Assembly (NCBI RefSeq): GCF_009932335.1
Contig: NZ_BLJF01000001.1
Span: forward strand, 1,798,001 to 1,862,000
Direction: 5' to 3'
DNA: 64,000 nt
DNA from: Pseudomonas asiatica
GTDB lineage: Bacteria; Pseudomonadota; Gammaproteobacteria; Pseudomonadales; Pseudomonadaceae
The notes beneath the pieces are model-generated. The model was given only the letters and a program-made list of their open reading frames with translations. It ran no database searches and had not been told where the DNA came from. The position numbers and the translations under genes are program-made. Numbering within the stretch: the stretch's first letter is position 1; each line of letters opens with the position of its first letter. Shown piece after piece: positions 45,214-64,000 of this stretch.

Positions 45214-46581
45214 TCAGCCTGCCGTTGCGGGCGATGGCTGCAGGCTGCCTGCCTGCTCGGGAACCCTGACGAACACGCTGTATCTGCCACCTTCCATTTC
45301 TTCGAAGGCAATCAGTTTTTTCACCAGCGGACCGCTCAGTACCTTGCCGGTATTCAATAGCAGCATGCCATTGTCGGCATTTAGGTTGCGGGCCAGTATC
45401 ATGCCCTCTGCCAGTTCGTGCGTGCTCAACACCTTGATCGCCGGGTCGGTCAAGGTAATGTCGCGCATGTACGCGGCACAGACATTGACGAAGTCTTCCA
45501 CCAGATCTGGGTCATACAGCTTTCCAGCATGCTTGCGTATGTAGAGCAGTGCCTCATCGCTATTGAGCTGGCGATCCAGAACCAGTCCGCGCTGCAATTC
45601 GATGAAATCCACAGCCATTTTCAACCAGCGGGCGCCCAGTGGAATTGCCACTCCCTTCAGGTGATCCGGAAAACCGCTGCCATCCCAGCGCTCCTGGTGG
45701 TGAAGTATGAGTTGTGCGGCTTCTTTTATTGGCTCCAGGGTCATGACCAGCGCTTCGCTCTGTTTCGGGTACGACCGGTACAGTTCGCGCTCTTGTGAAG
45801 GTATGAGATCGGCGGGGCAGGTGAGCATGTTGTCGGTCCAGCTCATCTTGCCGATGTTGTAGAGGGCTGCAGCCATGGTCAGGTTGCGACAGGTACCTTC
45901 GTCCAGTCCATGGCTGGTGCAATACACCCGTATCAATTCTATGACTTGCCGGTTGGTCTGCTTGGCCTTGGGCAGACGCATGTTGCCCAACTGCGAAAAG
46001 AACTCGGTGGTGGTCACGTAACTGCGCTTGAGTTCTTCATAGGCAAGGTCAAGCATGTCGGCAGTTTGCTGCAGTTCGGCGGTGCGCGCCGCTACACGCT
46101 GTTCAAGGCTTTCGTTAAGCGCCTTGAGTTGCGTGATCTGAACCTGAGTCAGCTGTTCCAGGCGTTTTCGCTCGCTTTCCGAATGTTGGTGGGCCAATGC
46201 CTGGCGCAAGGTGACCAACAGCTCTTCATCATTCCAGGGTTTGCTGATGTAACGATAGATGTGCCCATCATTGATGGCTTTTGCGATGGTGTCCGTGTCA
46301 GCGTACCCCGTAAGCAGAATGCGCAACGTGTCGGGAAAACGCTCATGTACGTGGGCCAACAGTGTTGCCCCGTCCATGTTTGGCATGCGCGCATCACTCA
46401 TCACCAGATTGATCGGGCGTTGTTGGAGCAGTTGCAGGGCGTCGGCACCGCTTTCGGCAAGGAGGAGTTCGTAGGGTTGGTTGCGAAGTAGACGACGAAG
46501 GCTGCTGAGAATCGAGGGCTCGTCGTCAACCAGAAGTATCACCGGCTTGTCTGCTGCGCCATCGGTAACGGGTAGCTCCAT
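45214..46581 (-). CDS. Response regulator with degenerate HD-GYP-type output domain
   Basis: 455 residues from ATG 46581. Residues 13-135 are a receiver domain with the acidic pocket DD19-20 and phospho-acceptor D63 in MSDARMPNMDG, and K114 in the YISKPW loop. A coiled coil (~136-185) leads to an HD-GYP-like domain (~195-400). There the HDIGK core reads Y241-N-I-G-K and the GYP loop reads HHQERWDGSGFP. Metal-binding His/Asp residues are lost in the first, so phosphodiesterase activity is doubtful. It is divergent from the peroxidase-kinase pair, its probable sensor partner. It resembles RpfG-type regulators. Confidence 0.9.
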   Translation of the reverse strand: MELPVTDGAADKPVILLVDDEPSILSSLRRLLRNQPYELLLAESGADALQLLQQRPINLVMSDARMPNMDGATLLAHVHERFPDTLRILLTGYADTDTIAKAINDGHIYRYISKPWNDEELLVTLRQALAHQHSESERKRLEQLTQVQITQLKALNESLEQRVAARTAELQQTADMLDLAYEELKRSYVTTTEFFSQLGNMRLPKAKQTNRQVIELIRVYCTSHGLDEGTCRNLTMAAALYNIGKMSWTDNMLTCPADLIPSQERELYRSYPKQSEALVMTLEPIKEAAQLILHHQERWDGSGFPDHLKGVAIPLGARWLKMAVDFIELQRGLVLDRQLNSDEALLYIRKHAGKLYDPDLVEDFVNVCAAYMRDITLTDPAIKVLSTHELAEGMILARNLNADNGMLLLNTGKVLSGPLVKKLIAFEEMEGGRYSVFVRVPEQAGSLQPSPATAG

Positions 46582-46716
46582 GGGTCCCTCCCTGCCGGTC
46601 TCGGCCAGACTACTCCCTGGCCACAGCCTAGATGATATTTGCCCCCGCCGTTAGCTTTTGTCTGTTGGCCTCACTATGCTCGGAGGCAGGTGCATCTCGC
46701 CAGGGAGGGTTGTGCT

Positions 46717-47679
46717 GTGCCGACTTGTCTGCAGGTTCGCATCGTTGTCTCGATGCTTGTGGTTTTGCCGGCATGGGTGCTGGCCCAGAGCATTGGTGGG
46801 CCGCTCACGCCATTGCCGGCGGTGCCTGAGCTTGACCCTGCCCGGGTGGAACTGGGGCGCAAACTGTTCAATGACTCGCGATTGTCCCTCGATAACAGCC
46901 AGTCCTGTGCTGATTGCCATCGCCTGGATCGTGGTGGCGCGGACGGGCAGGCGCGCTCGCCTGGTGCAGATGGCAAACCCTTGCCAGTTCACACACCCAG
47001 CGTCTTCAACGCCAGCCTGAACTTCCTGCAGTTCTGGGATGGGCGCGCGCAATCGTTTGACGGCCTGGTGCACCTGGCAACCGGTAATACGGACGGCAAA
47101 GAAGATGGCTGGGCTACCGTGGTCCAACGAATTGCTGACGATCCGGCTTACCAGACGGGGTTCGCCGAAGCCTATGGCAAACCAGTGACCGCCATCGATG
47201 TCAAAGATGCCCTGGTTACGTACCAGCGTACCCTGCTGACACCCGATTCACGCTTCGATCGCTATCTGAAAGGAGATACCAGCAGCCTCAGCCTGGAAGA
47301 GAAGCATGGCTATCAGCGCTTCCAGGAGTACGGTTGTATAGCCTGCCACCAGGGTGTGAATATCGGCGGCAACATGCTGCAGAAGTTCGGTGTTTTCGAT
47401 GATTATTTCACCAACCGTGGCAGTGTTACCTTGGCAGATCAGGGGCTCTACAACGTGACAGGTGATCCGGACGATCTCCACCTGTTCAAAGTTCCAAGCC
47501 TGCGAAACGTGGAGGTGACTGCCCCTTACTTTCATGATGGTTCGGCGCCCACCTTGGAAGCAGCCGTCGATGCCATGTTTCATTATCAGTTGGGACGTAC
47601 GCCGAGCGACGATGATAAAGCGCTGATCATCAAGTTTCTCCAGACCCTCACCGGCCAATGGGAGGGTAAACCGCTATGA
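46717..47679 (+). CDS. Diheme cytochrome c peroxidase (CcpA/MauG-like), exported
   Basis: 320 residues with a GTG start at 46717, preceded by GGAGGGTT. The first 28 residues are a signal peptide ending in VLAQS. Two haem c motifs: C64-A-D-C-H and C207-I-A-C-H, with the FWDGRAQS segment and a HTPSVFNASLNF strand between, and FHDGSAPTLEAAV after the second. This is the bacterial di-haem peroxidase pattern, which reduces H2O2 in the periplasm or, in MauG, oxidises a partner protein. Its stop overlaps the histidine kinase start by ATGA, so the two are coupled. Confidence 0.92.
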   Translation: MPTCLQVRIVVSMLVVLPAWVLAQSIGGPLTPLPAVPELDPARVELGRKLFNDSRLSLDNSQSCADCHRLDRGGADGQARSPGADGKPLPVHTPSVFNASLNFLQFWDGRAQSFDGLVHLATGNTDGKEDGWATVVQRIADDPAYQTGFAEAYGKPVTAIDVKDALVTYQRTLLTPDSRFDRYLKGDTSSLSLEEKHGYQRFQEYGCIACHQGVNIGGNMLQKFGVFDDYFTNRGSVTLADQGLYNVTGDPDDLHLFKVPSLRNVEVTAPYFHDGSAPTLEAAVDAMFHYQLGRTPSDDDKALIIKFLQTLTGQWEGKPL

Positions 47680-49487
47680 GGTTGAACGCTCGGCGCAGTC
47701 TGCTGCTGTTGGCTGCGTGCGCCATGTCGCTGGCTTCCGTGCTGGTCTACCTGTACTGGATGTCCAGGTCCGATGAGAGTGGCAACTACGCCCAGGCGCG
47801 CGATCTGATTCGCCAGATCAAGCAGTACGATGCACAGTGGGAGGGGGCAGTGCTCAAGGCGCGCACCACCACCAATTACAACTACGACCCGCTGGTGCTG
47901 CCGTTGATTGAAATGAAGCGCCTATGGCGGGAGTTCGGCACGCTGGAAGGGCGTCATCAAAAAACAGAAATGCTCGCTTGGCAAAAGGCTTTTCGCGATT
48001 ACCAACAGGCCTTTGACGACAAGGTCCTGCTGGTCTCGCGCTTCAAGACGCACAATGCGATCCTGCGAAATTCCCTGGCTTTTCTCCCGGCTGCGGCCGA
48101 TGTGATACAGGTGCACCTTCGTCGATTGGTTGATGCCGATACAGTGCGTCTGCGCAGAATCACCAGCGATACCTACGACCTGATGCTGAGCAGCCTTGAG
48201 TTTGCCCATGCCACAACAGATGAAAAAGCTGCCGACATCCTTGTCGGACTGAACAACCTTTCGGTCAACAAGGAGCGCTTGCCTGTCAATTTTCAGGTGC
48301 CCATCGATACCATCAGCAAACACATTGAGTTGATTCTTCGTGAGCAACCCAAGGTCGATCAACTACTTGAAGCGATCGAGGCGGTTCCGATCGCCGAGAG
48401 TCTGGACGCCATTGCGCTGATGCTGGACCGTGACGAGCAAGCAGCAGCGCTGACGGCTCAGCGATACCATTTCTACCTGTTGGTGTTTTCCACCCTGCTG
48501 GTATTGCTATTGCTGTACATGGGGATGTGGCTGATGCGTAGCTACGCCGAAATAAACCGTGTAAACCGAGCGCTGGTGAGTGCCAACGACGAATTGGAAC
48601 AGCGGGTCGAACGGCGTACCCAGGCACTTACCCAAGCCAGCGCAGCACTGCAGCGCGAGGTGGATGAACGCCGATTGCTCGAGAACCAGTTGGTCCAGTC
48701 CGAAAAGCTCGCCTCGCTCGGTCAACTGGCAGCCGGCGTAGCCCATGAAGTCAACAACCCGATTGGGTTTGTCTCTTCCAACCTCGGTGCACTGGACGAC
48801 TATTTCGGCCGTTTGCAGGACATGCTGAAGGCATATGCTGACGCGGAAAATACCCTGGTTCCGAACGCGCTCGGCGCGGAGCTGGCGAAGTTGCGCACGG
48901 AAATCGAGCTGGATTACTTGCTGGAGGATATTCCGGCGCTGATCCGCGAATCCAAGGACGGTATCAGCCGCGTTGCGCGGATCGTCAAGGACCTCAAGGA
49001 CTTTTCGCGAGTAGAGACCAGCCATGACTGGCAAGTGTCAGACTTGCATCAAGGCATAGAGTCAACGCTGAACATCGTTGCCAGCGAACTCAGGCACAAG
49101 GCGGACCTTGTCAAGGATTACAGCCCATTGCCGCCGGTCGAATGCCTGCCTTCACAGATCAATCAGGTAATCATGAATCTGCTGGTCAATGCCACCCAGG
49201 CGATGGGGGCCGAGCGTGGCAGAATTACCCTGCGAACCGGTGCCAGTGACAAGTGGGTATGGATCGAAGTCGCAGACAATGGTTGTGGCATTCCTGGCGA
49301 AAGCCTGCAAAAGATCTTCGATCCGTTCTACACGACGAAGCCCATCGGCCAGGGCACCGGGCTGGGATTGTCACTTTCGTACGGAATCATCAAGCGTCAT
49401 GGTGGCGAGATCCGCGTAGACAGCGAGGTGGGAGTCGGTACGACATTCAGGGTCGAACTGCCCATCCATCAGGCCCGGTTGGCCTGA
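47676..49487 (+). CDS. Membrane histidine kinase with DAHL-type sensor domain
   Basis: 603 residues from ATG 47676, overlapping the peroxidase gene by four bases. One membrane helix at ~8-28, a ~235-residue helical periplasmic domain (DAHL-like; rich in ARDLIRQIKQYDAQWEG-type helices), a second helix at ~267-290, then a coiled coil. The dimerisation domain has H357 in LAAGVAHEVNNPIGF, and the ATPase domain shows NQVIMNLLVNATQAM, DNGCGIPG and GTGLGLSLSYGIIKRHGG. It phosphorylates a response regulator, probably the divergent one at 45214. The signal is likely linked to the coupled peroxidase, by inference. Confidence 0.92.
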   Translation: MRLNARRSLLLLAACAMSLASVLVYLYWMSRSDESGNYAQARDLIRQIKQYDAQWEGAVLKARTTTNYNYDPLVLPLIEMKRLWREFGTLEGRHQKTEMLAWQKAFRDYQQAFDDKVLLVSRFKTHNAILRNSLAFLPAAADVIQVHLRRLVDADTVRLRRITSDTYDLMLSSLEFAHATTDEKAADILVGLNNLSVNKERLPVNFQVPIDTISKHIELILREQPKVDQLLEAIEAVPIAESLDAIALMLDRDEQAAALTAQRYHFYLLVFSTLLVLLLLYMGMWLMRSYAEINRVNRALVSANDELEQRVERRTQALTQASAALQREVDERRLLENQLVQSEKLASLGQLAAGVAHEVNNPIGFVSSNLGALDDYFGRLQDMLKAYADAENTLVPNALGAELAKLRTEIELDYLLEDIPALIRESKDGISRVARIVKDLKDFSRVETSHDWQVSDLHQGIESTLNIVASELRHKADLVKDYSPLPPVECLPSQINQVIMNLLVNATQAMGAERGRITLRTGASDKWVWIEVADNGCGIPGESLQKIFDPFYTTKPIGQGTGLGLSLSYGIIKRHGGEIRVDSEVGVGTTFRVELPIHQARLA

Positions 49488-51519: not shown

Positions 51520-54500
51520 ATGTCGATTCAGGCCAAGGTATCTCCCCTCGCTCAAAGTGTTACTTCTGCCGCCCCCATCGCAATCCCCAACAACGGAATC
51601 CTGACTCTTACCCAGAGCAGTAACATTGTTCTGGACATTGCTCCGGAAGGTGTGTCGGGCTACACGAAGAGCGGTGCCGATCTGATCGTACAGCTGAAGA
51701 GTGGCGAAAGCCTGCGCATTGCCAACTTCTATGTCGAGGGGCAGCCTGCAAGCCAGTTGTACCTGGTAGACCGGGACAAGCTGCTGGCCGTCGACCTGCC
51801 GCCGGTCGCTGCCGATGGGCCGCTGGTGGCGGGTTATGTACCCCAGGAAACGCCGGCCGGGTTCGAGTCACTCACTGGCGCCGACAGCACCATTGGCGGG
51901 CTCAGCCCCGGTGCTGCACTTCTGGCTGGCGCTGCGATCATTGGTGGCGGCGTCGCGATCGCCAACAGCAATGGCGGTGGTGGCGGTGGTGGTGGCGGTG
52001 ACAGCAGTGTGCCGCCCGATACTTCGGCCCCGGCGCCGGCCAGCGGGTTGCAAATTGCCCCGGATGGCAGCAGCATCAGCGGCACGGCCGAGCCGGGCGC
52101 CACCGTGGGCATCGACAGCAATGGCGATGGAGAAACCGACGTCAGCGTGGTCGTCGGCCCCGACGGCAAATTCCAGATTCCGCTGAATCCGCCACTGACC
52201 AACGGCGAAACGGTTTCCGTGGTGGTGACCGATCCGTCCGGCAATAGCAGCCCGCCCGCTACCGTGCAGGCCCCTGACTTCCCTGATGCGCCGCACATCA
52301 ACCCGAGCAACGGCTCCAGCCTCAGCGGTACCGCCGAGCCGGGCAGCACCGTGCTGCTTACCGACGGCAACGGCAACCCCATCGGCCAGACTACCGCCGA
52401 CGGCAACGGCAACTGGTCGTACACACCCGATAGCCCACTGCCCGATGGCACGGTGGTCAAAGCGGTGGTCGTGGATGCCGCCGGTAACAGCGGCCCGCCC
52501 GCCAGCACCATTATTGATGGTGTGGCGCCAGCGGCACCCGTGATCAATCCGAGCAACGGTACCGAGCTTAGCGGTACCGCCGAGCCGAACAGCGCCGTGA
52601 CCATCACCGATGGCAGCGGTAACCCGATCGGCCAGGTGACTGCCGATGGCAACGGCAACTGGAGCTACACCCCGGCGACACCGCTGCCAGACGGTACCGT
52701 GGTGAACGCCACCGCGACCGATGCGGCCGGTAATACCAGCGGGCAGGGCAGCACCACCGTGGATAGCGTGGCGCCGGGTGCGCCCACCATCAACCTGAGC
52801 GACGGTAGCAGCCTCAGCGGTACAGCCGAGCCAGGCAGTACCGTGGTCCTCACCGACGGCAACGGCAACCCAATCGGCCACGCTACAGCCGATGGCAATG
52901 GCAACTGGTCATATCCCACGGATACCCAACTGCCTGATGGAACAGTGGTTAATGCGGTGGTCACGGATGCCGCCGGCAACAGCAGCCCGCCCGCCAGCAC
53001 CGTGATCGATGGCGTGGCACCTTCGGCACCCACGATCAATCCGAGCAACGGCACCGTGATCAACGGTACTGCCGAGCCGAACAGCACCGTGACCCTCACC
53101 GACGGCAGCGGTAATCCGATCGGCCAGGTAGTAGCCGATGGCAGTGGCAACTGGAGCTATGTCCCGACCACGCCGCTGGCAAACGGCACTGTGGTCAACG
53201 TGGTGGCGCGGGACGCAGCCGGCAACACCAGTGCTCCATCGACCACCACAGTGGATTCGGTAGCCCCGGCGGCTCCAGTGGTCGAACCGAGCAACGGCAG
53301 CGAAATCAGCGGCACCGCCGAGCCGGGCAGTACCATCACCCTGACCGATGGCAGCGGCAACCCCATCGGCCAAACCACCGCCGACGGCAGCGGCAACTGG
53401 AGCTACAGCCCTGGTACGCCGCTGGCCGACGGTACCGTGGTCAACGCCACGGCGACCGACCCGGCTGGTAATACCAGCGGGCAGGGCAGCACCACCGTAG
53501 ACGGCGTGGCGCCGGGTACACCCACCATCAATCTCAGCAACGGCAGCAGCCTCAGCGGTACTGCCGAGCCGAACAGCACTGTGACCCTCACTGACGGCAG
53601 TGGTAACCCGATTGGCGAAGCCACTGCCGATGGCAGCGGCAACTGGACGTTCACCCCAGCCACACCACTGCCCAATGGCACCGTGGTCAATGCGACGGCG
53701 AGCGACCCGGCTGGCAACACCAGCCCGGCAGCGACGGTCACGGTCGACTCCAGCGCGCCGGCTGCACCGGTAATCGATCCTAGTAACGGGACGACCATCA
53801 GCGGGACTGCCGAAGCGGGTGCTACCGTCACACTCACCAATGGCAGCGGCAACCCGATCGGCCAGGTCACCGCCGACGGCAGCGGCAACTGGAGCTTCAC
53901 CCCCGGCTCGCCGCTGGCCAACGGCACCGTAATCATCGCCACGGCAACCGACCCGACCGGCAACACCGGTCCGCAGGCCGCCACCACGGTGGATTCGGTA
54001 GCCCCGGCGGCTCCAGTGGTCGAACCGAGCAACGGCAGCGAAATCAGCGGCACCGCCGAGCCGGGCAGTACCATCACCCTGACCGATGGCAGCGGCAACC
54101 CCATCGGCCAAACCACCGCCGACGGCAGCGGCAACTGGAGCTACAGCCCTGGTACGCCGCTGGCCGACGGTACCGTGGTCAACGCCACGGCGACCGACCC
54201 GGCTGGCAATACCAGCGGGCAGGGCAGCACCACCGTAGACGGCGTGGCGCCGGGTACACCCACCATCAATCTCAGCAACGGCAGCAGCCTCAGCGGTACT
54301 GCCGAGCCGAACAGCACCGTGACCCTCACTGACGGCAGCGGTAACCCGATTGGCGAAGCCACTGCCGACGGTAGCGGCAACTGGACGTTCACCCCAGCCA
54401 CACCACTGCCCAATGGCACCGTGGTCAATGCGACGGCGAGCGACCCGGCTGGCAACACCAGCCCGGCAGCGACGGTCACGGTCGACTCCAGCGCGCCGGC

Positions 54501-56955
54501 TGCACCGGTAATCGATCCTAGTAACGGGACGACCATCAGCGGGACTGCCGAAGCGGGTGCTACCGTCACACTCACCAATGGCAGCGGCAACCCGATCGGC
54601 CAGGTCACCGCCGACGGCAGCGGCAACTGGAGCTTCACCCCCGGCTCGCCGCTGGCCAACGGCACCGTAATCATCGCCACGGCAACCGACCCGACCGGCA
54701 ACACCGGTCCGCAGGCCGCCACCACGGTGGATTCGGTAGCCCCGGCGGCTCCAGTGGTCGAACCGAGCAACGGCAGCGAAATCAGCGGCACCGCCGAGCC
54801 GGGCAGTACCATCACCCTGACCGATGGCAGCGGCAACCCCATCGGCCAAACCACCGCCGACGGCAGCGGCAACTGGAGCTACAGCCCTGGTACGCCGCTG
54901 GCCGACGGTACCGTGGTCAACGCCACGGCGACCGACCCGGCTGGCAATACCAGCGGGCAGGGCAGCACCACCGTAGACGGCGTGGCGCCGGGTACACCCA
55001 CCATCAATCTCAGCAACGGCAGCAGCCTCAGCGGTACTGCCGAGCCGAACAGCACCGTGACCCTCACTGACGGCAGTGGTAACCCGATTGGCGAAGCCAC
55101 TGCCGACGGTAGCGGCAACTGGACGTTCACCCCAGCCACACCACTGCCCAATGGCACCGTGGTCAATGCGACGGCGAGCGACCCGGCTGGCAACACCAGC
55201 CCGACAGCGACGGTCACGGTCGACTCCAGCGCGCCGGCTGCACCGGTAATCGATCCTAGTAACGGGACGACCATCAGCGGGACTGCCGAAGCGGGTGCTA
55301 CCGTCACACTCACCAATGGCAGCGGCAACCCGATCGGCCAGGTCACCGCTGACGGCAGCGGCAACTGGAGCTTCACCCCCGGCTCGCCGCTGGCCAACGG
55401 CACCGTGATCATCGCCACGGCAACCGACCCGACCGGCAACACCGGTCCGCAGGCCTCCACCACGGTGGACTCGGTAGCCCCGGCGGCTCCAGTGGTCGAA
55501 CCGAGCAACGGCAGCGAAATCAGCGGCACCGCCGAACCGGGCAGTACCATCACCCTGACCGATGGCAGCGGCAACCCCATCGGCCAAACCACCGCCGACG
55601 GCAGCGGCAACTGGAGCTACAGCCCTGGTACGCCGCTGGCCAACGGCACAGTGGTCAACGCCACGGCGACCGACCCGGCTGGGAACACCGGCCCACAGGG
55701 CACCACCACCGTGGATTCGATCGCACCTGCCGCGCCGGTGGTCAATCCGAGCAACGGCAACGTGATCAACGGTACTGCCGAGCCGAACAGCACCGTGACC
55801 CTCACCGACGGCAACGGTAATCCCATTGGCGAGGTCACCGCTGACGGTAGCGGTAACTGGACGTTCGTACCCAGCACGCAACTGCCCAACGGCACCGTGG
55901 TCAACGCTACGGCGACTGATGCCGCCGGTAATACTGGTGCCCCCGGTAGCACTACCGTGGACTCGTCGCTGCCGTCGATTCCGCAGGTCGATCCGAGCAA
56001 CGGCTCGGTGATCAGCGGTACCGCGGATGCGGGTAACACCATTACCCTCACCGACGGCAACGGCAACCCGATCGGCCAGGTCACCGCCGACGGCAGCGGC
56101 AACTGGTCGTTCACGCCCGGTATACCGCTGCCGGATGGCACTGTGGTCAACGCTGTGGCACGTAACCCCGGTGGGACCGATAGTGCGCCAGCGGTCATTA
56201 CCGTGGACGGCGTTGCGCCGGCCGCACCGGTGGTCGAACCGAGCAACGGCACGGAAATCAGCGGTACCGCCGAAGCCGGGGCCAAGGTGATCCTCACCGA
56301 CGGCAGCGGCAACCCGATCGGCGAGACTACCGCCGATGGCAGTGGTAACTGGTCGTTCACACCTGGCACGCCGCTGGCCAACGGCACGGTGATCAACGCC
56401 GTGGCCCAGGACCCGGCCGGCAATACCAGCGGGCCGGCCAGCGTCACCGTTGACGCAATCGCCCCGGCTGCACCGATCATCAACCCGAGCAACGGGGTGG
56501 TGATCAGTGGTACCGCCGAAATAGGGGCCAAGGTGATTCTCACTGACGGTAGCGGCAACCCGATTGGCGAGACGACGGCCGACGGCAGTGGCAACTGGGC
56601 CTTCACGCCTACAGTTCCGCTGGCGAACGGCACGGTGATCAATGCCGTGGCCCAGGACCCGTCCGGCAATACCAGCGGGCCGACCAGCGCCACCGTTGAT
56701 GCCATCGCCCCGGCCGCACCGATCATCAACCCGAGCAACGGGGTAGTGATCACTGGTACCGCTGAAGCCGGGGCCAAGGTGATCCTCACCGACGGCAGCG
56801 GCAACCCCATCGGCCAGACTACCGCCGATGGCAGCGGTAACTGGACTTTCACACCTGCAACTCCGCTTGCCAACGGCACGGTGATCAATGCCGTGGCTCA
56901 GGATGCGCCGGCAACACCAGCACTCCACAGGTCAGCACCACGGTTGATGCCGTAG
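51520..56955 (+). CDS. LapF-like giant surface adhesin, N-terminal and repeat part (frameshifted)
   Basis: 1,811 residues from ATG 51520. Residues 1-~125 are a BapA-type prefix domain (NNGILTLTQSSNIVLDIAPE), then a hydrophobic stretch (LSPGAALLAGAAIIGGGVAI), a nine-glycine hinge (152-160), and tandem Ig-like repeats of about 82 residues, each with a SGTAEPGSTITLTDGSGNPI core and a DGSGNW turn. The frame breaks after 56906 with one base missing; the last ~17 codons are out of phase and the protein ends at 56955. The continuing frame (57027-59903) holds the remaining repeats and the C-terminal secretion signal. As read, this product lacks that signal. The following TolC, ABC and HlyD genes fit its export. 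Confidence 0.88.
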   Translation: MSIQAKVSPLAQSVTSAAPIAIPNNGILTLTQSSNIVLDIAPEGVSGYTKSGADLIVQLKSGESLRIANFYVEGQPASQLYLVDRDKLLAVDLPPVAADGPLVAGYVPQETPAGFESLTGADSTIGGLSPGAALLAGAAIIGGGVAIANSNGGGGGGGGGDSSVPPDTSAPAPASGLQIAPDGSSISGTAEPGATVGIDSNGDGETDVSVVVGPDGKFQIPLNPPLTNGETVSVVVTDPSGNSSPPATVQAPDFPDAPHINPSNGSSLSGTAEPGSTVLLTDGNGNPIGQTTADGNGNWSYTPDSPLPDGTVVKAVVVDAAGNSGPPASTIIDGVAPAAPVINPSNGTELSGTAEPNSAVTITDGSGNPIGQVTADGNGNWSYTPATPLPDGTVVNATATDAAGNTSGQGSTTVDSVAPGAPTINLSDGSSLSGTAEPGSTVVLTDGNGNPIGHATADGNGNWSYPTDTQLPDGTVVNAVVTDAAGNSSPPASTVIDGVAPSAPTINPSNGTVINGTAEPNSTVTLTDGSGNPIGQVVADGSGNWSYVPTTPLANGTVVNVVARDAAGNTSAPSTTTVDSVAPAAPVVEPSNGSEISGTAEPGSTITLTDGSGNPIGQTTADGSGNWSYSPGTPLADGTVVNATATDPAGNTSGQGSTTVDGVAPGTPTINLSNGSSLSGTAEPNSTVTLTDGSGNPIGEATADGSGNWTFTPATPLPNGTVVNATASDPAGNTSPAATVTVDSSAPAAPVIDPSNGTTISGTAEAGATVTLTNGSGNPIGQVTADGSGNWSFTPGSPLANGTVIIATATDPTGNTGPQAATTVDSVAPAAPVVEPSNGSEISGTAEPGSTITLTDGSGNPIGQTTADGSGNWSYSPGTPLADGTVVNATATDPAGNTSGQGSTTVDGVAPGTPTINLSNGSSLSGTAEPNSTVTLTDGSGNPIGEATADGSGNWTFTPATPLPNGTVVNATASDPAGNTSPAATVTVDSSAPAAPVIDPSNGTTISGTAEAGATVTLTNGSGNPIGQVTADGSGNWSFTPGSPLANGTVIIATATDPTGNTGPQAATTVDSVAPAAPVVEPSNGSEISGTAEPGSTITLTDGSGNPIGQTTADGSGNWSYSPGTPLADGTVVNATATDPAGNTSGQGSTTVDGVAPGTPTINLSNGSSLSGTAEPNSTVTLTDGSGNPIGEATADGSGNWTFTPATPLPNGTVVNATASDPAGNTSPTATVTVDSSAPAAPVIDPSNGTTISGTAEAGATVTLTNGSGNPIGQVTADGSGNWSFTPGSPLANGTVIIATATDPTGNTGPQASTTVDSVAPAAPVVEPSNGSEISGTAEPGSTITLTDGSGNPIGQTTADGSGNWSYSPGTPLANGTVVNATATDPAGNTGPQGTTTVDSIAPAAPVVNPSNGNVINGTAEPNSTVTLTDGNGNPIGEVTADGSGNWTFVPSTQLPNGTVVNATATDAAGNTGAPGSTTVDSSLPSIPQVDPSNGSVISGTADAGNTITLTDGNGNPIGQVTADGSGNWSFTPGIPLPDGTVVNAVARNPGGTDSAPAVITVDGVAPAAPVVEPSNGTEISGTAEAGAKVILTDGSGNPIGETTADGSGNWSFTPGTPLANGTVINAVAQDPAGNTSGPASVTVDAIAPAAPIINPSNGVVISGTAEIGAKVILTDGSGNPIGETTADGSGNWAFTPTVPLANGTVINAVAQDPSGNTSGPTSATVDAIAPAAPIINPSNGVVITGTAEAGAKVILTDGSGNPIGQTTADGSGNWTFTPATPLANGTVINAVAQDAPATPALHRSAPRLMP
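53263..55476 (+). repeat. Three near-identical 738-bp units within the adhesin
   Basis: The phrase GCCCCGGCGGCTCCAGTGGT begins at 53263, 54001, 54739 and 55477, exactly 738 bp (three 246-bp repeats) apart. The first three units differ at only a few visible positions; the fourth diverges after about one repeat. Confidence 0.9.
56893..56920 (+). other. One-base frameshift in the adhesin gene
   Basis: At 56899 the read is CAGGATGCGCCGGCAACACC. The matching place in a later repeat (57639) reads CAGGACGCCGCCGGCAACAC, continuing with C, one base longer. The missing base lies after 56906. Frame 1 closes at 56955 and frame 0 carries on unbroken to 59903. No homopolymer run or slippery heptamer is at the break. 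Confidence 0.9.
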
Positions 56956-57026
56956 CCCCAGGCCAGCCGACGATCGAGCCGAGCAATGGCACCGAGATCA
57001 GTGGTACCGCCGAAGCCGGAGCCAAG

Positions 57027-59903
57027 GTGATCCTCACCGATGGCAACGGCAACCCGCTCGGCGAGACGACCGCCGATGGTAGCGGCAACTGGTCGTTCAC
57101 ACCCGGCACACCGCTGGCCAACGGCACGGTGATCAACGCCGTGGCCCAGGACCCGGCCGGCAATACCAGCGGGCCGGCCAGCGTCACCGTTGACGCAATT
57201 GCCCCGGCCGCGCCGATCGTCAATCCAAGCAACGGGGTGGTGATCACTGGTACCGCCGAAGTAGGTGCCAAGGTGATTCTCACTGACGGTAGCGGTAATC
57301 CGATCGGCGAGACGACCGCCGACGGCAGTGGCAATTGGACCTTCACGCCTGCGACTCCGCTGGCCAACGGTACAGTGATCATCGCCGTTGCCCAGGACGT
57401 GGCCGGCAATACCAGCCTGCAGGGCAGCACCACGGTGGATTCAGTCGCACCTGGCCAGCCGACGATCGACCCGAGCAACGGGGCCGTGATCACTGGTAGT
57501 GCTGAGGCCGGGGCCAAGGTGATCCTCACCGACGGCAACGGCAACCCGATCGGCGAGACGACCGCCGATGGCAGTGGCAACTGGACCTTTACGCCTGGTG
57601 CGCCTCTGGCCAACGGCACGGTGATCAACGCCGTGGCTCAGGACGCCGCCGGCAACACCAGCACCCCACAGGTCAGCACCACGGTTGATGCCGTAGCCCC
57701 AGGCCAGCCGACGATCGAGCCGAGCAATGGCACCGAGATCAGTGGTACCGCCGAAGCCGGAGCCAAGGTGATCCTCACCGACGGCAACGGCAACCCGATC
57801 GGTGAGACGACCGCCGACGGCAGTGGCAACTGGACCTTTACGCCTGCAACCCCGCTGGCCAACGGCACAGTGGTCAACGCCGTGGCCCAGGACCCGGCCG
57901 GCAATGCCAGCGGGCCGAGCAGCGTCACCGTTGACGCTATCGCCCCGGGCGCGCCGACCATCGAGCCGAGCAATGGTGTGGTCCTCACGGGTACCGCTGA
58001 GCCCGGCGCCACCGTCATCCTCACCGATGGTGGCGGCAACCCGATCGGCGAGACGACCGCCGACGGCAGTGGCGACTGGAGCTTCACCCCAACCACGCCG
58101 CTGGCCAATGGCACGGTGGTCACCGCGGTGGCCCAGGACGCCGCCGGCAACAGCAGTGGCCCGGCCAGTACCACGGTCGACACGGTGGCGCCGTCGGCGC
58201 CGCTGCTGAGCATCAGTGCCGACGGTGCGCTGCTGACCGGTACCGCCGAGCCGAACAGCCAGGTGCGCCTCGTGATCGACGGCGATACCGCCAACCCGAT
58301 CACGGTGAATGTCGACGGCGCCGGTAACTTCAGCCTGCCGTTGGCACCACCGCTGATCACCGGCGAGCTGATCAGCGGGGTCACCGCCGACGCTGCCGGC
58401 AACCTCAGCGGCCCGGCAACGATCAACGCGCCGGACCTGGCTCCGCCGACCATCAGCGTACCGGAGGCAGCCGATACCTGGATCAACGCTGCCGAGATCA
58501 GCGACGGCATCCAGGTCGACGTGACGATCCGCCCGACCATGCAGGTCGGCCAGGTGATCACCGTCGCGTTCGCCGGGCAGAACGGTTATGAGACGCAGGT
58601 AACGCACACCATCACTGCCGGCGACATCCTGGCCGGCAGCGTCACCGTGACCATACCCCCTGGCGATGGCATGGGGCCGTTCCCGGAGGGCGCCTCGACC
58701 GTCACCGCCGATATCAATGGCGGTATCGCGTCGAACCCGGTGCCGTTCACCGTCGACACCATTCCGCCTTCAACACCGGTGCTGTCGCTGGTGGGCAGCA
58801 TCCTGACCATCTCCACCGATCCGGGCACCGAACTGACGGTCACCGTGGACGTCGGCGGGGTCACTGCCACCGCCACGGTAACTGCCGACAACAGCGGGCT
58901 GGCTTCGCTGAACCTGCTCACCGACCTGGACATAGACCTTACCCTGGACCAACTGCTCAATGCCCAAGTCTCCGTGACCGGTGAGGACCCTGCCGGCAAC
59001 CCGAGCAATGTGGCGACCATCGGCGTCGGCAGCAGCATCGAGCAGCCAGTGACCATCGGTAACTTCGGCGTCGATGTCAGCCTCAACCCACTGAACCCGC
59101 GGTTCGGTTTCAGCGGCACCACCGAGCCGGACTCCAGCGTGGTGATCCGTGTCATCACCCCGGCGCTGAACGTCGAGCTGCTGCCGATCCAGGCGGACAG
59201 TTCCGGCAACTTCTCGCTGAACCTGCTGAGCCCGACCGTCCTCACCCAGTTGGGGTTGAACATCACCGATATCCTCAACCTCGGTTCGCAGATCTCGTTC
59301 AACATCGTCGCCACCGACACCAACGGCAACGACAGCTCGGCCTACGGCATCACCCTGGCCCCTAACGGGCTGTCGCTGAATATCGGCCAGATCGACGTCA
59401 ACGGCACCTCGGGGGACGATGTCATGTCCGGGGCGGACGGCAGTTCGGAGCACATCAATGGAGGCGATGGCAGCGACCTGATCTTCAACGTGGGGACCGG
59501 CGATCAGGTAGTGGCAGGCGATGGCAACGACGCCATCCAGATCACCGCGACCGACTTCACCAGCATCGACGGCGGTGCGGGCTTCGACACCCTGATCCTG
59601 GCCGACGGCATCGACCTCGACTACAACGCCGTCGGCGTCGGCACGCTCTCGAACATCGAGCGTATCGACCTCGGCAAGGGCGACTCGGGGAGCGTGCTGA
59701 CATTGACTGCGGCGGAGGTCGACGCCATCACCGATGGCAACAACATCCTGCAGATCACTGGCGAGAGCAACGACACCCTCAACGTGGTGGGTGCCGTGAA
59801 CACAGGAACCACCCAGCAGGTCAACGGCATTACCTACGATGTCTACAACTTTGGCAGCAGTACCCTGCTGATCGAGGACAACACGGTACAGGTCGTGGTC
59901 TGA
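57027..59903 (+). CDS. LapF-like adhesin, C-terminal part with T1SS signal (continuation after frameshift)
   Basis: 958 residues in frame 0; the GTG at 57027 is only the first possible start, and the frame is open from the frameshift at 56907. It holds about five further Ig-like repeats, then non-repeat domains (from ~58,200: DAAGNLSGPATINAPDL and VPEAADTWINAAEISDGIQV). Near the end is an RTX-type segment, GTSGDDVMSG with GGDGSDLIF and GDGNDAIQI, then the hydrophobic C-terminus TLLIEDNTVQVVV, the pattern of type I secretion signals. Joined in frame with the upstream part it makes about 2,790 residues, less than half the ~6,300 of the LapF protein known from P. putida KT2440. The stop shares one base with the next gene's ATG. 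Confidence 0.88.
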   Translation: MILTDGNGNPLGETTADGSGNWSFTPGTPLANGTVINAVAQDPAGNTSGPASVTVDAIAPAAPIVNPSNGVVITGTAEVGAKVILTDGSGNPIGETTADGSGNWTFTPATPLANGTVIIAVAQDVAGNTSLQGSTTVDSVAPGQPTIDPSNGAVITGSAEAGAKVILTDGNGNPIGETTADGSGNWTFTPGAPLANGTVINAVAQDAAGNTSTPQVSTTVDAVAPGQPTIEPSNGTEISGTAEAGAKVILTDGNGNPIGETTADGSGNWTFTPATPLANGTVVNAVAQDPAGNASGPSSVTVDAIAPGAPTIEPSNGVVLTGTAEPGATVILTDGGGNPIGETTADGSGDWSFTPTTPLANGTVVTAVAQDAAGNSSGPASTTVDTVAPSAPLLSISADGALLTGTAEPNSQVRLVIDGDTANPITVNVDGAGNFSLPLAPPLITGELISGVTADAAGNLSGPATINAPDLAPPTISVPEAADTWINAAEISDGIQVDVTIRPTMQVGQVITVAFAGQNGYETQVTHTITAGDILAGSVTVTIPPGDGMGPFPEGASTVTADINGGIASNPVPFTVDTIPPSTPVLSLVGSILTISTDPGTELTVTVDVGGVTATATVTADNSGLASLNLLTDLDIDLTLDQLLNAQVSVTGEDPAGNPSNVATIGVGSSIEQPVTIGNFGVDVSLNPLNPRFGFSGTTEPDSSVVIRVITPALNVELLPIQADSSGNFSLNLLSPTVLTQLGLNITDILNLGSQISFNIVATDTNGNDSSAYGITLAPNGLSLNIGQIDVNGTSGDDVMSGADGSSEHINGGDGSDLIFNVGTGDQVVAGDGNDAIQITATDFTSIDGGAGFDTLILADGIDLDYNAVGVGTLSNIERIDLGKGDSGSVLTLTAAEVDAITDGNNILQITGESNDTLNVVGAVNTGTTQQVNGITYDVYNFGSSTLLIEDNTVQVVV

Positions 59904-61174
59904 TGCGCGGCCTGTCCGTGCTCAAGGGAAAGCGCCGTGGCGCGGGAGCCCTTTGGCTCCTGTGCTTCGGGCTGCCGCTGTCCGCGCCGGCCATTCCTCT
60001 CGACCAAGCGGTGCGGGCGGGGTTGGCGATCCACCCGCAGGTGCGTTCGGCGATGGCCGAAGCGGACCGTGCGGGTACCGAGGTAGAGATCGCCAAGGGT
60101 GGTTACTACCCCTCCGTCACCATGTCCGGGGGGCCGCAGGAGTTCGACGTTGGCGAGGTCGTCTACGACGTCACCGTATCGCAGATGCTGTATGACTGGG
60201 GAAGGGTGACGAGCAAGGTCGACAGCGCCAGCGCCACCCGGCGCAAACTGTCCGAGGCGGTGCTGGTGGCGCGCGACGATGCTGCGCTGGATATCGTCGA
60301 GACCTACCTCGACGTGCTTGCCTCGGAGCGCCGGGTGGAAACGGTGCGCCAGCACATCCAGCGTCTGGACGGCATCCGCGAGATGACCCAGGCGCGCGGC
60401 AGCGATGGTTACGCCGACCGCAGCGAACTGGACCGCGCCAACCTCGAACTGTCGCGTGCCCAGGAACAGCTGTCGCTGGAGAAGGGCAACCTGCAGGACG
60501 CGCGCAACCAGTACGCGATCCTGGTTGGCCAGGACCCCTCCGAGCTGGTGGAGCCAGAGCCGATGTCGCTGCAGCGCTACCTGGCTGCCAGCGACGTGGC
60601 GCGGGTGATCCGTGAGTCGCCGTTGCAGCGCAAGGCGCTGGAGGACGCCAATGTCGCCGAGGCGCAAGTGCGCGAGGCCAAGGCTTCGTTGCTGCCGCAG
60701 TTGAACCTGGAGGCCTCAGCGTTGCGCCGGGAGATCGGCGGTCGTCCGGAAAGCGACTCGGTGATGTCGCTGCGCTTTCGCATGGATACCTTCCAGGGGC
60801 TTTCCAACTTCCGTCGGCCGACTGCTGCGCAACAGCGTCTGGAGTCGGCGCAATGGACGGCCGATGCGATGCAGCGTGACATCCGCCGGCAGTTGCAGAC
60901 GCTGTTCGACAACGGTGACACGCTACGGTGGCGGGAACAGTCCCTGAGCCAGCAGGTGACGGAGTCGGAGCAGGTTGGCGAGCTGTACCGCGAGCAATTC
61001 GAGGTCGGCCGACGCGACGTGATCGACTTGCTCAACGTGCAGCGCGAACGCTTCGAGGCCGAGCGGCAGTTGATCAATCTGCACATAGAGCGCAAGCGTA
61101 TCGAGTATCGAGCGGCCGCGCAGGTCGGGTTGTTGGGGGCATTACTGGAGAATCGGTTGAATCATGGAAGTTGA
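59903..61174 (+). CDS. TolC-family outer-membrane protein of type I secretion
   Basis: 423 residues from ATG 59903, overlapping the adhesin stop. A signal peptide ends near LSAPA. The mature part has the TolC repeated helices: LDQAVRAGLAIHPQVRSAMA, the conserved YDVTVSQMLYDWGRVTSKVD strand segment, and a final VGRRDVIDLLNVQRERFEAE helix. It forms the outer-membrane tunnel for the adhesin. The stop lies 11 bases into the ABC gene, so the three export genes are coupled. Confidence 0.93.
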   Translation: MRGLSVLKGKRRGAGALWLLCFGLPLSAPAIPLDQAVRAGLAIHPQVRSAMAEADRAGTEVEIAKGGYYPSVTMSGGPQEFDVGEVVYDVTVSQMLYDWGRVTSKVDSASATRRKLSEAVLVARDDAALDIVETYLDVLASERRVETVRQHIQRLDGIREMTQARGSDGYADRSELDRANLELSRAQEQLSLEKGNLQDARNQYAILVGQDPSELVEPEPMSLQRYLAASDVARVIRESPLQRKALEDANVAEAQVREAKASLLPQLNLEASALRREIGGRPESDSVMSLRFRMDTFQGLSNFRRPTAAQQRLESAQWTADAMQRDIRRQLQTLFDNGDTLRWREQSLSQQVTESEQVGELYREQFEVGRRDVIDLLNVQRERFEAERQLINLHIERKRIEYRAAAQVGLLGALLENRLNHGS

Positions 61175-63326
61175 ACAATCCCCGGATAATGTCGTGACCC
61201 TGAACCACGACGACCCGCTGCGCCAGGGCCTGCTGCTGCTGTGCCGGCAACTGGGCCGGCCGTTGGGCGACGCCGAACTGGTCGACGGCCTGGCAATAGA
61301 GCACGGACGCCTGCCGCTGCGCCTGGTAGCCCGCGCCCTGCGTCGCGCCGACATAACTGCCAGGGTCGCGGAGCTGCCGTTGCGGCAGATGGACGCCTAC
61401 CTGCTGCCGGCCCTGCTGTTGCTCGACGATGGCCGCAGCCTGCTGCTGGTTGGCATCGAGGGTGAGCAGTACGAGGTGCTGGTGCCGCAGAGCGACGGCG
61501 GCCGTGAGTGCATGGCGCGGCCCGCTCTGGAGGCGCTTTACAGCGGCACGGCGGTGTTCGCCAAGTGCCGCTACCGCCCCGATGGGCGGGTGGGCGACTA
61601 CGCCAGCGGCCTGCCGGAGCACTGGTTCTTCGGGCCGCTCAAGCGGCTCTGGCGCTCTTATGCGGAAGTCACGGCGGCGGCCCTGGTGGCCAACGTCCTG
61701 GCCGTCGCCTCGGCGCTGTTCGCCATGCAGGTTTACGACCGCGTGGTGCCCAACGCAGCCTTCGATACCCTGTGGATACTCGCCAGCGGCGTGGCCTTGG
61801 CGATCATCGTCGACGGGGTATTGCGGATCCTTCGCGGGCACCTGCTGAACGTTCTCGGCAAGCGCCTGGACCTGCAGTTGTCGAGCCTGCTGTTCGCGCG
61901 CGTGCTGAGTACCCGGATCGCCGCCAAACCGGCGTCGATGGGCGCGTTCAGCACCCAGGTGCGTGAGTTCGAGTCGGTCCGCGAGTTCTTCACTTCGTCC
62001 AGCGCCGCACTGATCAGCGACCTGCCGTTCGTGGCGATCTTCCTGTTGATCATTGCCGTGATCGGCGGCCATGTGGTCTGGGTGCCGCTGGTGGCTTGTG
62101 TGCTGATGCTGCTGCCAGGGCTGCTGACCCAGCGCCTGCTGGGGCACCTGTCGCGGCAGAACCTGCGCGAGGGGGCGCTGAAGAACAGCGTGCTGCTGGA
62201 AGCCTTCGAACACCTGGAGACGGTCAAGGCCGCGCGTGCCGAAGGCCGCTGCCAACAGCAGTGGGAGACGCTCACCGGGGAACTGGCCGGTACTGCAATG
62301 AAGACCCATGCGTTGGCCTCGACCCTCAGCTATTCGGCGAGTATCGTTCAGCAGCTGTGCTATGTCGGGGTGGTGGTGTTCGGCGTCTACCGGATAAGCG
62401 ACGGCGCGATGACCGTCGGTGCCCTGGTGGCCTGTTCGATCCTGGCCTCGCGGGCCATCGCACCACTGTCCCAGGCTGCCGCCATCCTTGGCCGCTGGCA
62501 ACATACCAAGGTGGCGCTGGAGGGGCTCGACCAGCTGATGTCCGCCGAGCAGGAGAGGCCCGCCGGCAAGCGCTTCGTGCACCGCGACCGGCTCCACGGG
62601 CATTACCGCCTGGAGGCGCTGCGCCTGGCCCACGGCGACAGCCCACCGGTGGTCGACGTGCAGGCGCTGAACATCCAGGCCGGCGAGCGGGTAGCGCTGC
62701 TCGGTGGCAACGGCGCCGGCAAGTCGACCCTGCTGCGGCTGCTCAGCGGCCTGCTCGACGCGCAATCCGGCCGGCTGCTGCTGGACGACATCGCCCTGAG
62801 CCAGCTCGACCCGGCCGACCGCCAGCGCGGCATCGGCTACTTGCCGCAGGATGTGGCGCTGTTCCACGGCAGCCTGCGGGAAAACCTCAACCTGGCCAAC
62901 GCCGCGCTGGGCGACGAGGAATTGCTGGAAGCCCTCGATGGCGTAGGGCTGGGTACTTTCGTGCGCGCCCACCCGTTGGGCCTGGACATGCCGATCCAGG
63001 GCAATGCCAGCCTCTCCGGCGGCCAGCGCCAGGCGGTGGGGTTGGCCCGCGTACTGTTGCAGGACCCGCCGATCCTGCTGCTTGACGAGCCGACCGCGGC
63101 CTTCGACCAGAACAGCGAGAAACAGGTCATCGACTACCTGCAGAAATGGCTGGGCCGGCGCACCCTGATCATCACCACCCACAAGAAAAGCGTATTGGCG
63201 CTGGTGGACCGTGCAGTGGTGCTGCGCAACGGCCAGGTGATCATGGACGGCCCGCTGAACCAGGTGGTGCTGGGCAACCAGGTGCAGGCGCCGCAGGTCG
63301 CCGAAGGAGTCGGCCATGGCAGCTGA
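61164..63326 (+). CDS. Type I secretion ABC transporter (LapB-like) with C39-like N-domain
   Basis: 720 residues from ATG 61164, overlapping the TolC gene. Residues 1-~130 are a C39-peptidase-like domain (DPLRQGLLLLCRQLGRPLGD) without the catalytic Q..ECG signature, so it probably binds rather than cuts the substrate. The membrane domain spans ~160-440. The ATPase has GGNGAGKST (Walker A), LSGGQRQAVGLARVLL (signature), ILLLDEPTA (Walker B) and TTHKKS (switch His). It should power adhesin secretion with the TolC and HlyD proteins encoded beside it. Confidence 0.93.
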   Translation: MEVEQSPDNVVTLNHDDPLRQGLLLLCRQLGRPLGDAELVDGLAIEHGRLPLRLVARALRRADITARVAELPLRQMDAYLLPALLLLDDGRSLLLVGIEGEQYEVLVPQSDGGRECMARPALEALYSGTAVFAKCRYRPDGRVGDYASGLPEHWFFGPLKRLWRSYAEVTAAALVANVLAVASALFAMQVYDRVVPNAAFDTLWILASGVALAIIVDGVLRILRGHLLNVLGKRLDLQLSSLLFARVLSTRIAAKPASMGAFSTQVREFESVREFFTSSSAALISDLPFVAIFLLIIAVIGGHVVWVPLVACVLMLLPGLLTQRLLGHLSRQNLREGALKNSVLLEAFEHLETVKAARAEGRCQQQWETLTGELAGTAMKTHALASTLSYSASIVQQLCYVGVVVFGVYRISDGAMTVGALVACSILASRAIAPLSQAAAILGRWQHTKVALEGLDQLMSAEQERPAGKRFVHRDRLHGHYRLEALRLAHGDSPPVVDVQALNIQAGERVALLGGNGAGKSTLLRLLSGLLDAQSGRLLLDDIALSQLDPADRQRGIGYLPQDVALFHGSLRENLNLANAALGDEELLEALDGVGLGTFVRAHPLGLDMPIQGNASLSGGQRQAVGLARVLLQDPPILLLDEPTAAFDQNSEKQVIDYLQKWLGRRTLIITTHKKSVLALVDRAVVLRNGQVIMDGPLNQVVLGNQVQAPQVAEGVGHGS

Positions 63327-64000
63327 AAAAAGTTCTGTAGTGCTGCGCCGGCAACTGGCCGACCCCTTGCTGGCGACCACTCACCCGGTCTATCGCCCGC
63401 TGCTCTGGACCCTGCTAGGCAGCGTCTTGCTGTTCGTTGCCTGGGCTGCCTGGGCGGAGCTCGATGAAGTGACGCGCGGCGATGGGCGTGTGGTGCCGTT
63501 CAGCCGCATCCAGAAGATCCAGAGCCTGGAAGGGGGCATTCTCGACCGCCTGCTGGTGCAGGAGGGCGACCTGGTGGAGGTCGGCCAGCCGCTGCTGCGC
63601 CTGGACGAGACGCGCTTTCTCACCAACTTCCAGGAGTCGGCCAACCAGGCCGGCGTGCTGCGCGCGGCCATCGCCCGGCTGGACGCCGAGGTGCTGGGCA
63701 AGGCGGCGATAGAGTTCCCGCCGGACATCGACCCGCAAGGGCCGCTGGCGCGTTCCGAGCGCGAGCTGTTCAAGTCGCGGCGGGACAAGCTGCTCGAAGG
63801 CAGCCAGGCGATCCAGAGGCAGATCAGCCTGGCCCAGAGCCAGCTCGACCTGGTCCGCCCGCTGGTGGCCAAGCGTGCGGTGAGCCAGATGGAGGCGCTG
63901 CGGCTGAGCCAGGACATCGCTACCCTCAACGGTAAGCTGACCGAGCTGAAGAGTAGCTACTTCCAGGATGCCTATACCGAACGCTCACAGCGCAAGGCCG
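63316..64000 (+). CDS. HlyD-family membrane fusion protein (3' end outside window)
   Basis: About 228 residues visible from ATG 63316, overlapping the ABC gene by 11 bases. A single inner-membrane helix (LLWTLLGSVLLFVAWAAWAE) is followed by the lipoyl/barrel start VTRGDGRVVPFSRIQKIQSL, EGGILDRLLVQEGDLV, and a coiled coil rich in Arg/Glu (RDKLLEGSQAIQRQISLAQS). It bridges the ABC and TolC proteins. The final beta-barrel part lies beyond the window. Confidence 0.93.
   Translation, partial: MAAEKSSVVLRRQLADPLLATTHPVYRPLLWTLLGSVLLFVAWAAWAELDEVTRGDGRVVPFSRIQKIQSLEGGILDRLLVQEGDLVEVGQPLLRLDETRFLTNFQESANQAGVLRAAIARLDAEVLGKAAIEFPPDIDPQGPLARSERELFKSRRDKLLEGSQAIQRQISLAQSQLDLVRPLVAKRAVSQMEALRLSQDIATLNGKLTELKSSYFQDAYTERSQRKA

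What the first reader, a model, noticed from the sequence alone, without database searches (positions are those of the whole stretch)
56893..56920. One-base frameshift separates the adhesin repeats from the secretion signal
Frame 1 (51520) stops at 56955, while frame 0 is open from 56907 to the natural end at 59903. The equivalent site in a later repeat has one more base. The C-terminal secretion signal would therefore never be made on the same chain as the surface part. Either the gene is a pseudogene or phase-off allele, or a base is missing in the sequence. The open, conserved second half and the intact export genes suggest recent loss or a sequencing or assembly error.
Basis: partly seen in the sequence, partly recalled or inferred. 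Interest (0 to 1): 0.75.

Follow-up and report, generated by a model that had tools for sequence, protein, structure and literature searches.

The report
Frameshifted BapA biofilm adhesin gene
A large biofilm adhesin gene in a Pseudomonas putida-group bacterium is split in two by a one-base shift, so the part that sticks to surfaces is cut off from its export signal; this looks like an ordinary recent gene loss, with a sequencing error as the main alternative.

Summary
51520-59903 is a bapA-type adhesin gene followed by open bapBCD-type exporter genes. Its length is 2 mod 3: one frame runs from 51520 to the stop at 56953-56955, the other carries the homologous rest from about 56907 to 59903. 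All 106 matches across the site (11 in the gene's own repeats, 95 in ten loci of relatives) differ from it by 1 mod 3; neighbouring repeats do not. Of 13 other genomes with this gene, nine have one open frame, three are cut by contig ends, and one (G402) is broken repeatedly. A noisy assembly is not the likely cause: 241 kb of other compared coding DNA shows no second break, while G402 shows 4-11 per comparison, and the same genome's repetitive lapA is open. The C-terminal part is conserved (private codon changes: 13 silent, 1 replacement). The frame overlap holds no homopolymer of 4 or more and no slippery heptamer. Best reading: recent loss of BapA export (0.65); a single sequence error comes second (0.28); a switch or programmed frameshifting is unlikely. 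Precedents are published for Acinetobacter and Salmonella.

The parts
51520..56955 (+). 5' part of the bapA-type gene: BapA_N domain, glycine linker, about 19-20 Ig-like repeats; the frame ends in out-of-family residues and a stop
   Evidence: PF22783 and NF033677 over cut-off, PF17936 in 20 stretches, NF040520 996 bits (cut-off 750)
56893..56920 (+). site of the one-base frame break
   Evidence: net length differs by 1 mod 3 from all 106 matches that span it; a 20-base string across it occurs, as an exact match, only in this genome among 398 of the genus
56841..56955 (+). overlap in which both frames are open; no slippery heptamer, no homopolymer of 4 or more
56907..59903 (+). 3' part in the other frame: about 6-7 more repeats, unique C-terminal region, GGDGSD (59460-59477) and the end that type I export is expected to need
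   Evidence: export motif named in PMC3510237 (passages)
53403..55616 (+). three tandem 738-base blocks (733 and 728 of 738 bases of the second and third identical to the first); some relatives' proteins are longer by about one such block
59903..61174 (+). bapB-like outer-membrane channel; its ATG shares one base with the adhesin's TGA
   Evidence: PF02321 149 bits (cut-off 22); TIGR01844 158 bits is under its cut-off of 225
61164..63326 (+). bapC-like ABC exporter, LssB subfamily
   Evidence: TIGR03375 879 bits (cut-off 693)
63316..64000 (+). bapD-like HlyD adaptor, runs off the window; 395 aa when read on in L065
   Evidence: the window's fragment scores 136 bits on TIGR01843, under the cut-off of 209

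Best explanation
The gene is a recently inactivated allele of bapA, the type I-secreted biofilm adhesin of the bapABCD operon. Relative to every other copy compared, one base (mod 3) is lost near the 20th Ig-like repeat. Ribosomes starting at 51520 make about 1795 family residues and a short wrong tail, then stop at 56955. That product lacks the C-terminal GGDGSD export end (shown from sequence), so it should stay in the cytoplasm and probably be degraded (inferred). The exporter genes are open, but the early stop leaves 2948 bases without ribosomes before bapB, whose ATG overlaps the adhesin stop, so coupled translation of the exporter may fall too (inferred). LapA is intact in the assembly and may cover for the loss (inferred).
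For: All 106 matches disagree with this site by 1 mod 3, and neighbouring repeats do not. Of 13 other genomes of the genus with the C-terminal region, nine have one open frame and three are open to their contig ends. The two pieces, compared apart with the 14 closest proteins, abut with one residue between them in six of 2793-2795 aa; six more carry about 246 extra residues there; in two (P0063, P0027) the C piece aligns only from its residue 12. No other break: 1 of 157 orthologues against G175 (this gene), 0 of 109 against G402, 0 of 129 against G115, 0 of 90 against G084; 16 further raw rows were rejected, and in each the smaller part scores as non-coding and a separate open gene of this genome covers the larger part, except one that lies in the adhesin and reflects G402's own shift. 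241,227 compared bases outside the gene without a break. The lapA-type gene of the same genome is open for 5404 codons to an RTX-like end. The site lies outside the exactly repeated 150-mers of the gene. Last 488 codons: dN/dS 0.08-0.12 against seven relatives, private changes 13 silent and 1 replacement. Precedents: frameshifted BLP2 in 5 of 6 A. junii genomes, split BAP genes in A. baumannii (PMC4647330, passages).
Against: No reads, and no sequence known to be from the same species or strain. G402, one of the 13 others, is broken too, though its whole assembly looks noisy. The shift string was found in no other genome (1 of 398, exact match of 20 bases), which fits an error as well as a very recent loss, and an allele with one more substitution would have been missed. 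The absence of decay in the second half also fits an error. An exact repeat of 116 bases runs through 56925, just after the site. Zero other breaks bounds the rate only to about 1.2e-5 per base, or 0.1 expected in this gene, and bounds real losses just as much.
Confidence: 0.65

Rival explanations
1. The break is a single residual sequencing or assembly error in a repeat-rich gene, and the living strain makes normal BapA.
For: The second half is fully conserved, the string is private to this genome among 398, a 116-base exact repeat lies just after the site, and the authors of PMC4647330 warn that most A. baumannii BAP sequence data could be wrong (passages). A relative, G402, shows what such errors look like: at least eight breaks in its copy of this gene.
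Against: No other break in 241 kb of compared coding DNA, none in the lapA-type gene and none elsewhere in this array. No exact repeat of 15 bases or more runs through positions 56900 and 56905. No homopolymer of 4 or more in the overlap.
Confidence: 0.28
2. A reversible off state: slippage at a short repeat, or recombination or gene conversion within the tandem array, switches the frame on and off in the population.
For: The array holds many similar copies and relatives differ by about one block. S. aureus Bap expression is reported as phase variable, by an unclear mechanism (PMC7911514, passages).
Against: No homopolymer of 4 or more at the site. No other genome of 398 carries the exact string, and the nine single-frame homologues show no off state.
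Confidence: 0.05
3. Programmed -1 frameshifting in the 115-base overlap, or translation restart (for example GTG 57027), makes a full or a separate C-terminal exportable product.
For: Both frames are open in the overlap; the C part alone holds repeats and the export end. PMC4647330 raises -1 frameshifting for A. baumannii BAP (passages).
Against: No X XXY YYZ heptamer in the overlap; nine relatives use one frame; the GTG at 57027 is an ordinary valine codon of the repeat motif, seen in several repeats; residues on the wrong side of the break are not family-like in either frame.
Confidence: 0.02

Closest known systems
P. aeruginosa BapA (PA1874) with BapBCD (PA1875-1877), PprB-regulated T1SS adhesin (PMC3510237, passages)
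   Same: gene order, BapA_N start, Ig repeat array, GGDGSD export motif, outer-membrane, ABC and fusion-protein genes; C-terminal 488 residues about 89% identical to P. aeruginosa homologues (PA1874 itself was not compared)
   Different: here the reading frame is broken; regulation by PprB not tested
Acinetobacter BLP2 (NF040520) and its frameshifted alleles (PMC4647330, passages)
   Same: 5' part scores 996 bits against a cut-off of 750; frameshift separating N and C regions into two ORFs in A. junii
   Different: different genus; the 3' part alone is under the cut-off (251 bits); Acinetobacter sequences not aligned here
LapA of environmental pseudomonads
   Same: giant adhesin with a repeat array, exported by a T1SS (recalled)
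   Different: this gene has BapA_N; the LapA retention module of this genome is in a different, open gene on contig C2
Salmonella BapA, annotated as a frameshift pseudogene in strain LT2 (stated in PMC4647330)
   Same: T1SS adhesin of the BapA kind with a reported frameshift
   Different: sequence not compared here

Membership tests
BapA (bapABCD type) | BapA_N prefix domain at the N-terminus | tested here: met
   PF22783 42.5 bits (cut-off 27), NF033677 50.2 (cut-off 35)
BapA (bapABCD type) | no signal peptide | not tested
   stated for P. aeruginosa BapA in PMC3510237; not computed here
BapA (bapABCD type) | array of bacterial Ig-like repeats | tested here: met
   PF17936 in 20 and 6 stretches of the two parts
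BapA (bapABCD type) | C-terminal T1SS end with GGDGSD | tested here: met
   present at 59460-59477, but in the other frame
BapA (bapABCD type) | followed by bapB, bapC, bapD exporter genes | tested here: met
   OEP-type channel, LssB-type ABC, HlyD-type adaptor
BapA (bapABCD type) | one continuous reading frame | tested here: not met
   a broken allele, so a member by descent and not a working gene as assembled
BapA (bapABCD type) | secreted, supports biofilm | not testable with these tools
   needs the strain
Phase-variable (contingency) gene | simple-sequence tract at the break | tested here: not met
   no homopolymer of 4 or more in 56841-56955
Phase-variable (contingency) gene | reversible change by recombination in the array | not testable with these tools
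   needs populations or strains of the species
Programmed -1 frameshift gene | slippery heptamer in the overlap, split conserved in relatives | tested here: not met
   no heptamer; nine relatives in one frame

The most novel reading that the evidence does not exclude
The tandem Ig array acts as a slow reversible switch: point indels turn BapA export off, and recombination or conversion between similar repeats can later change the state again, so a strain keeps intact exporter genes and an intact LapA while toggling a second adhesin.
Probability: 0.05. Interest if true: 0.5.

Novelty: new member of a known kind. Interest (0 to 1): 0.18.

Why it matters
If real, it is one more case of a dispensable giant adhesin lost by a single base while its exporter is kept, and it warns against listing this strain as BapA-positive from domain hits alone. 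If it is an error, the annotation of this genome needs a note. A one-base change in a Desulfovibrio T1SS exporter that abolished biofilm in a laboratory culture is on record (PMC5646257, abstract).

Tried and rejected
Assembly-wide noise: rejected by the comparison with four relatives. A first, cruder run gave 10 breaks in this genome and 11 in G175, because of antisense ORFs and over-long starts. After choosing ORFs by codon usage, 17 raw rows remained for this genome. Asking that both parts look coding in the reference left one, the adhesin, and dropped 16. Four of the 16 were read by eye; all 16 were then listed with scores: the smaller part scores between -0.02 and -0.48 per codon in every one, against 0.17 and 0.24 for the two adhesin parts. 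One G084 gene shows a clear break of its own against two relatives.

Programmed frameshift heptamer, homopolymer tract, promoter-like or terminator-like site at the break: none found. No Rfam match at gathering thresholds in 44-64 kb.

A search for shorter C-terminal proteins (390 found, best 120 listed) showed partial or short forms, many in P. aeruginosa. Both protein lists were capped at 120 and the database is clustered at 90%, so the same allele in a close strain could be hidden.

The 998-codon dN/dS values for four relatives (0.37-0.70) were set aside, as I take their repeats to be out of register; P. pudica gives 0.13. An N-terminal dN/dS was begun and not completed.

Paper searches listed no report of this allele. 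They cover open-licence PubMed Central papers only.

Full report
WHAT IS THERE. The window lies in a 5.97-Mb genome of three contigs. The nearest named relatives by the outer-membrane protein gene are Pseudomonas sp. Kh13, P. inefficax, P. pudica and Pseudomonas sp. SID14000 (97-98% identity), and the closest full-length adhesins come from P. asiatica, P. shirazica and unclassified Pseudomonas. It is therefore taken as a P. putida-group strain (group membership of these species is recalled); the genome itself is unnamed. The gene at 51520-59903 begins with a BapA_N domain, carries a long array of bacterial Ig-like repeats and ends in a unique region with a GGDGSD motif. It is followed by an outer-membrane channel, an LssB-type ABC exporter and an HlyD-type adaptor, all open. 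This is the bapABCD order described for P. aeruginosa PA1874-1877 (PMC3510237, passages).

THE BREAK. The reading frame from 51520 stops at 56955; the frame that carries the rest of the protein is open from 56841 and family-like from about 56907. I aligned 170 bases across the site to the gene itself and to ten loci of relatives. All 106 matches spanning the site (11 in the gene, 95 elsewhere; matches to any repeat; L041 and L054 appear to be one contig, so 100 distinct) differ in length by 1 mod 3. Three neighbouring repeats tested the same way gave 0 mod 3 in 149 of 151, 118 of 119 and 128 of 130 matches; three of the five exceptions are the broken site itself, two (in L040 and L053) were left unexplained. 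Chance is not an explanation.

RELATIVES. Of 398 genomes drawn from the genus, 14 including this one encode the C-terminal region at E up to 1e-30. Of the other 13, nine have the gene in one open frame (2237-3493 codons stop to stop), three are cut by contig ends but open to the end, and one, G402, is broken at least eight times in the stretch held. P. pudica (L037) and P. aeruginosa PA7 (L040) are also single-frame. The N and C pieces, compared apart with the 14 closest proteins, abut with one residue between them in six; six others carry about 246 extra residues there, the size of one 738-base block; in two (P0063, P0027) the C piece aligns only from its residue 12. A 20-base string across the site occurs as an exact match in this genome only, 1 of 398; an allele with a further substitution would be missed.

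ERROR OR REAL. I compared 460 kb around the gene with stretches of four relatives. With both parts required to look coding in the reference, this genome shows 1 break in 157 orthologues against G175, which is the adhesin, and 0 of 109, 0 of 129 and 0 of 90 against G402, G115 and G084. G402 as target shows 10 of 105, 11 of 140, 8 of 106 and 4 of 72, so the test does see a noisy assembly, and G402's broken adhesin is best read as noise. The 16 raw rows dropped by the coding filter all have a smaller part that scores as non-coding. Outside the adhesin, 241,227 bases were compared without a break, which bounds the rate at about 1.2e-5 per base and the expectation in this gene at about 0.1. The genome's lapA-type gene (LapA retention module 148 bits, cut-off 50) is open for 5404 codons; vWA-like and RTX-like sequence at its end was recognised by eye. 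The 20-kb stretch that holds it has 4640 positions whose 150-mer recurs, against 1179 in the 8.4-kb bapA-type gene, where they fall between 53251 and about 55076, away from the break. Against this, an exact repeat of 116 bases runs through 56925, just after the site. These results make a repeat-driven assembly error less likely but do not exclude a single wrong base.

AGE. In the last 488 codons dN/dS against seven relatives is 0.08-0.12, and codon changes private to this strain are 13 silent and 1 replacement, much as in five relatives (12/1, 18/4, 13/0, 29/2 and 18/2, the last being G402). No further stop interrupts the second part. If the loss is real, it is recent.

HOW IT WORKS. Shown from sequence: the 5' product lacks the export end, and the stop leaves 2948 bases before bapB, whose ATG overlaps the adhesin's TGA. 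Inferred: the truncated product is not exported and is unstable, as P. aeruginosa BapA was not detected when the exporter subunit BapD was missing (PMC3510237, passages); and bapB translation may fall through loss of coupling. No slippery heptamer, homopolymer of 4 or more, promoter-like or terminator-like site was found at the break.

AGAINST THE KNOWN. Frameshifted or split Bap-family genes are on record: BLP2 in 5 of 6 A. junii genomes, BAP in A. baumannii, and Salmonella LT2 bapA, with sequencing error debated there too (PMC4647330, passages). The present case is a new allele of a known kind. Scores: real loss 0.65, error 0.28, switch 0.05, recoding 0.02; interest 0.18.

Noticed in passing
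window 52909-56928, minus strand: An antisense open frame of 1339 aa runs opposite the repeat array; I take it as a by-product of the repeats' composition, untested.
   Followed up: no
L052 (G402): The adhesin of this single-contig relative is broken at least eight times, and 4-11 genes per comparison are broken in its surroundings: a noisy-looking assembly that is still scored 99% complete.
   Followed up: yes
G000:C2:14238-30449 (L149 1238-17449): Open lapA-type adhesin gene, 5404 codons stop to stop, with a LapA retention module.
   Followed up: partly
window 53403-55616: Three 738-base blocks, 98.6-100% identical; several relatives' proteins are longer by about 246 residues, so block number seems to vary between strains.
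   Followed up: partly
window 45214-49487: Upstream lie an HD-domain response regulator, a MauG-like di-haem enzyme and a DAHL-domain histidine kinase; they were not compared with PprAB, which controls bapA in P. aeruginosa.
   Followed up: no
L142 near base 16444 (G084): One gene of about 506 codons in the genome that appears to be P. inefficax is broken by a frameshift against two relatives.
   Followed up: no
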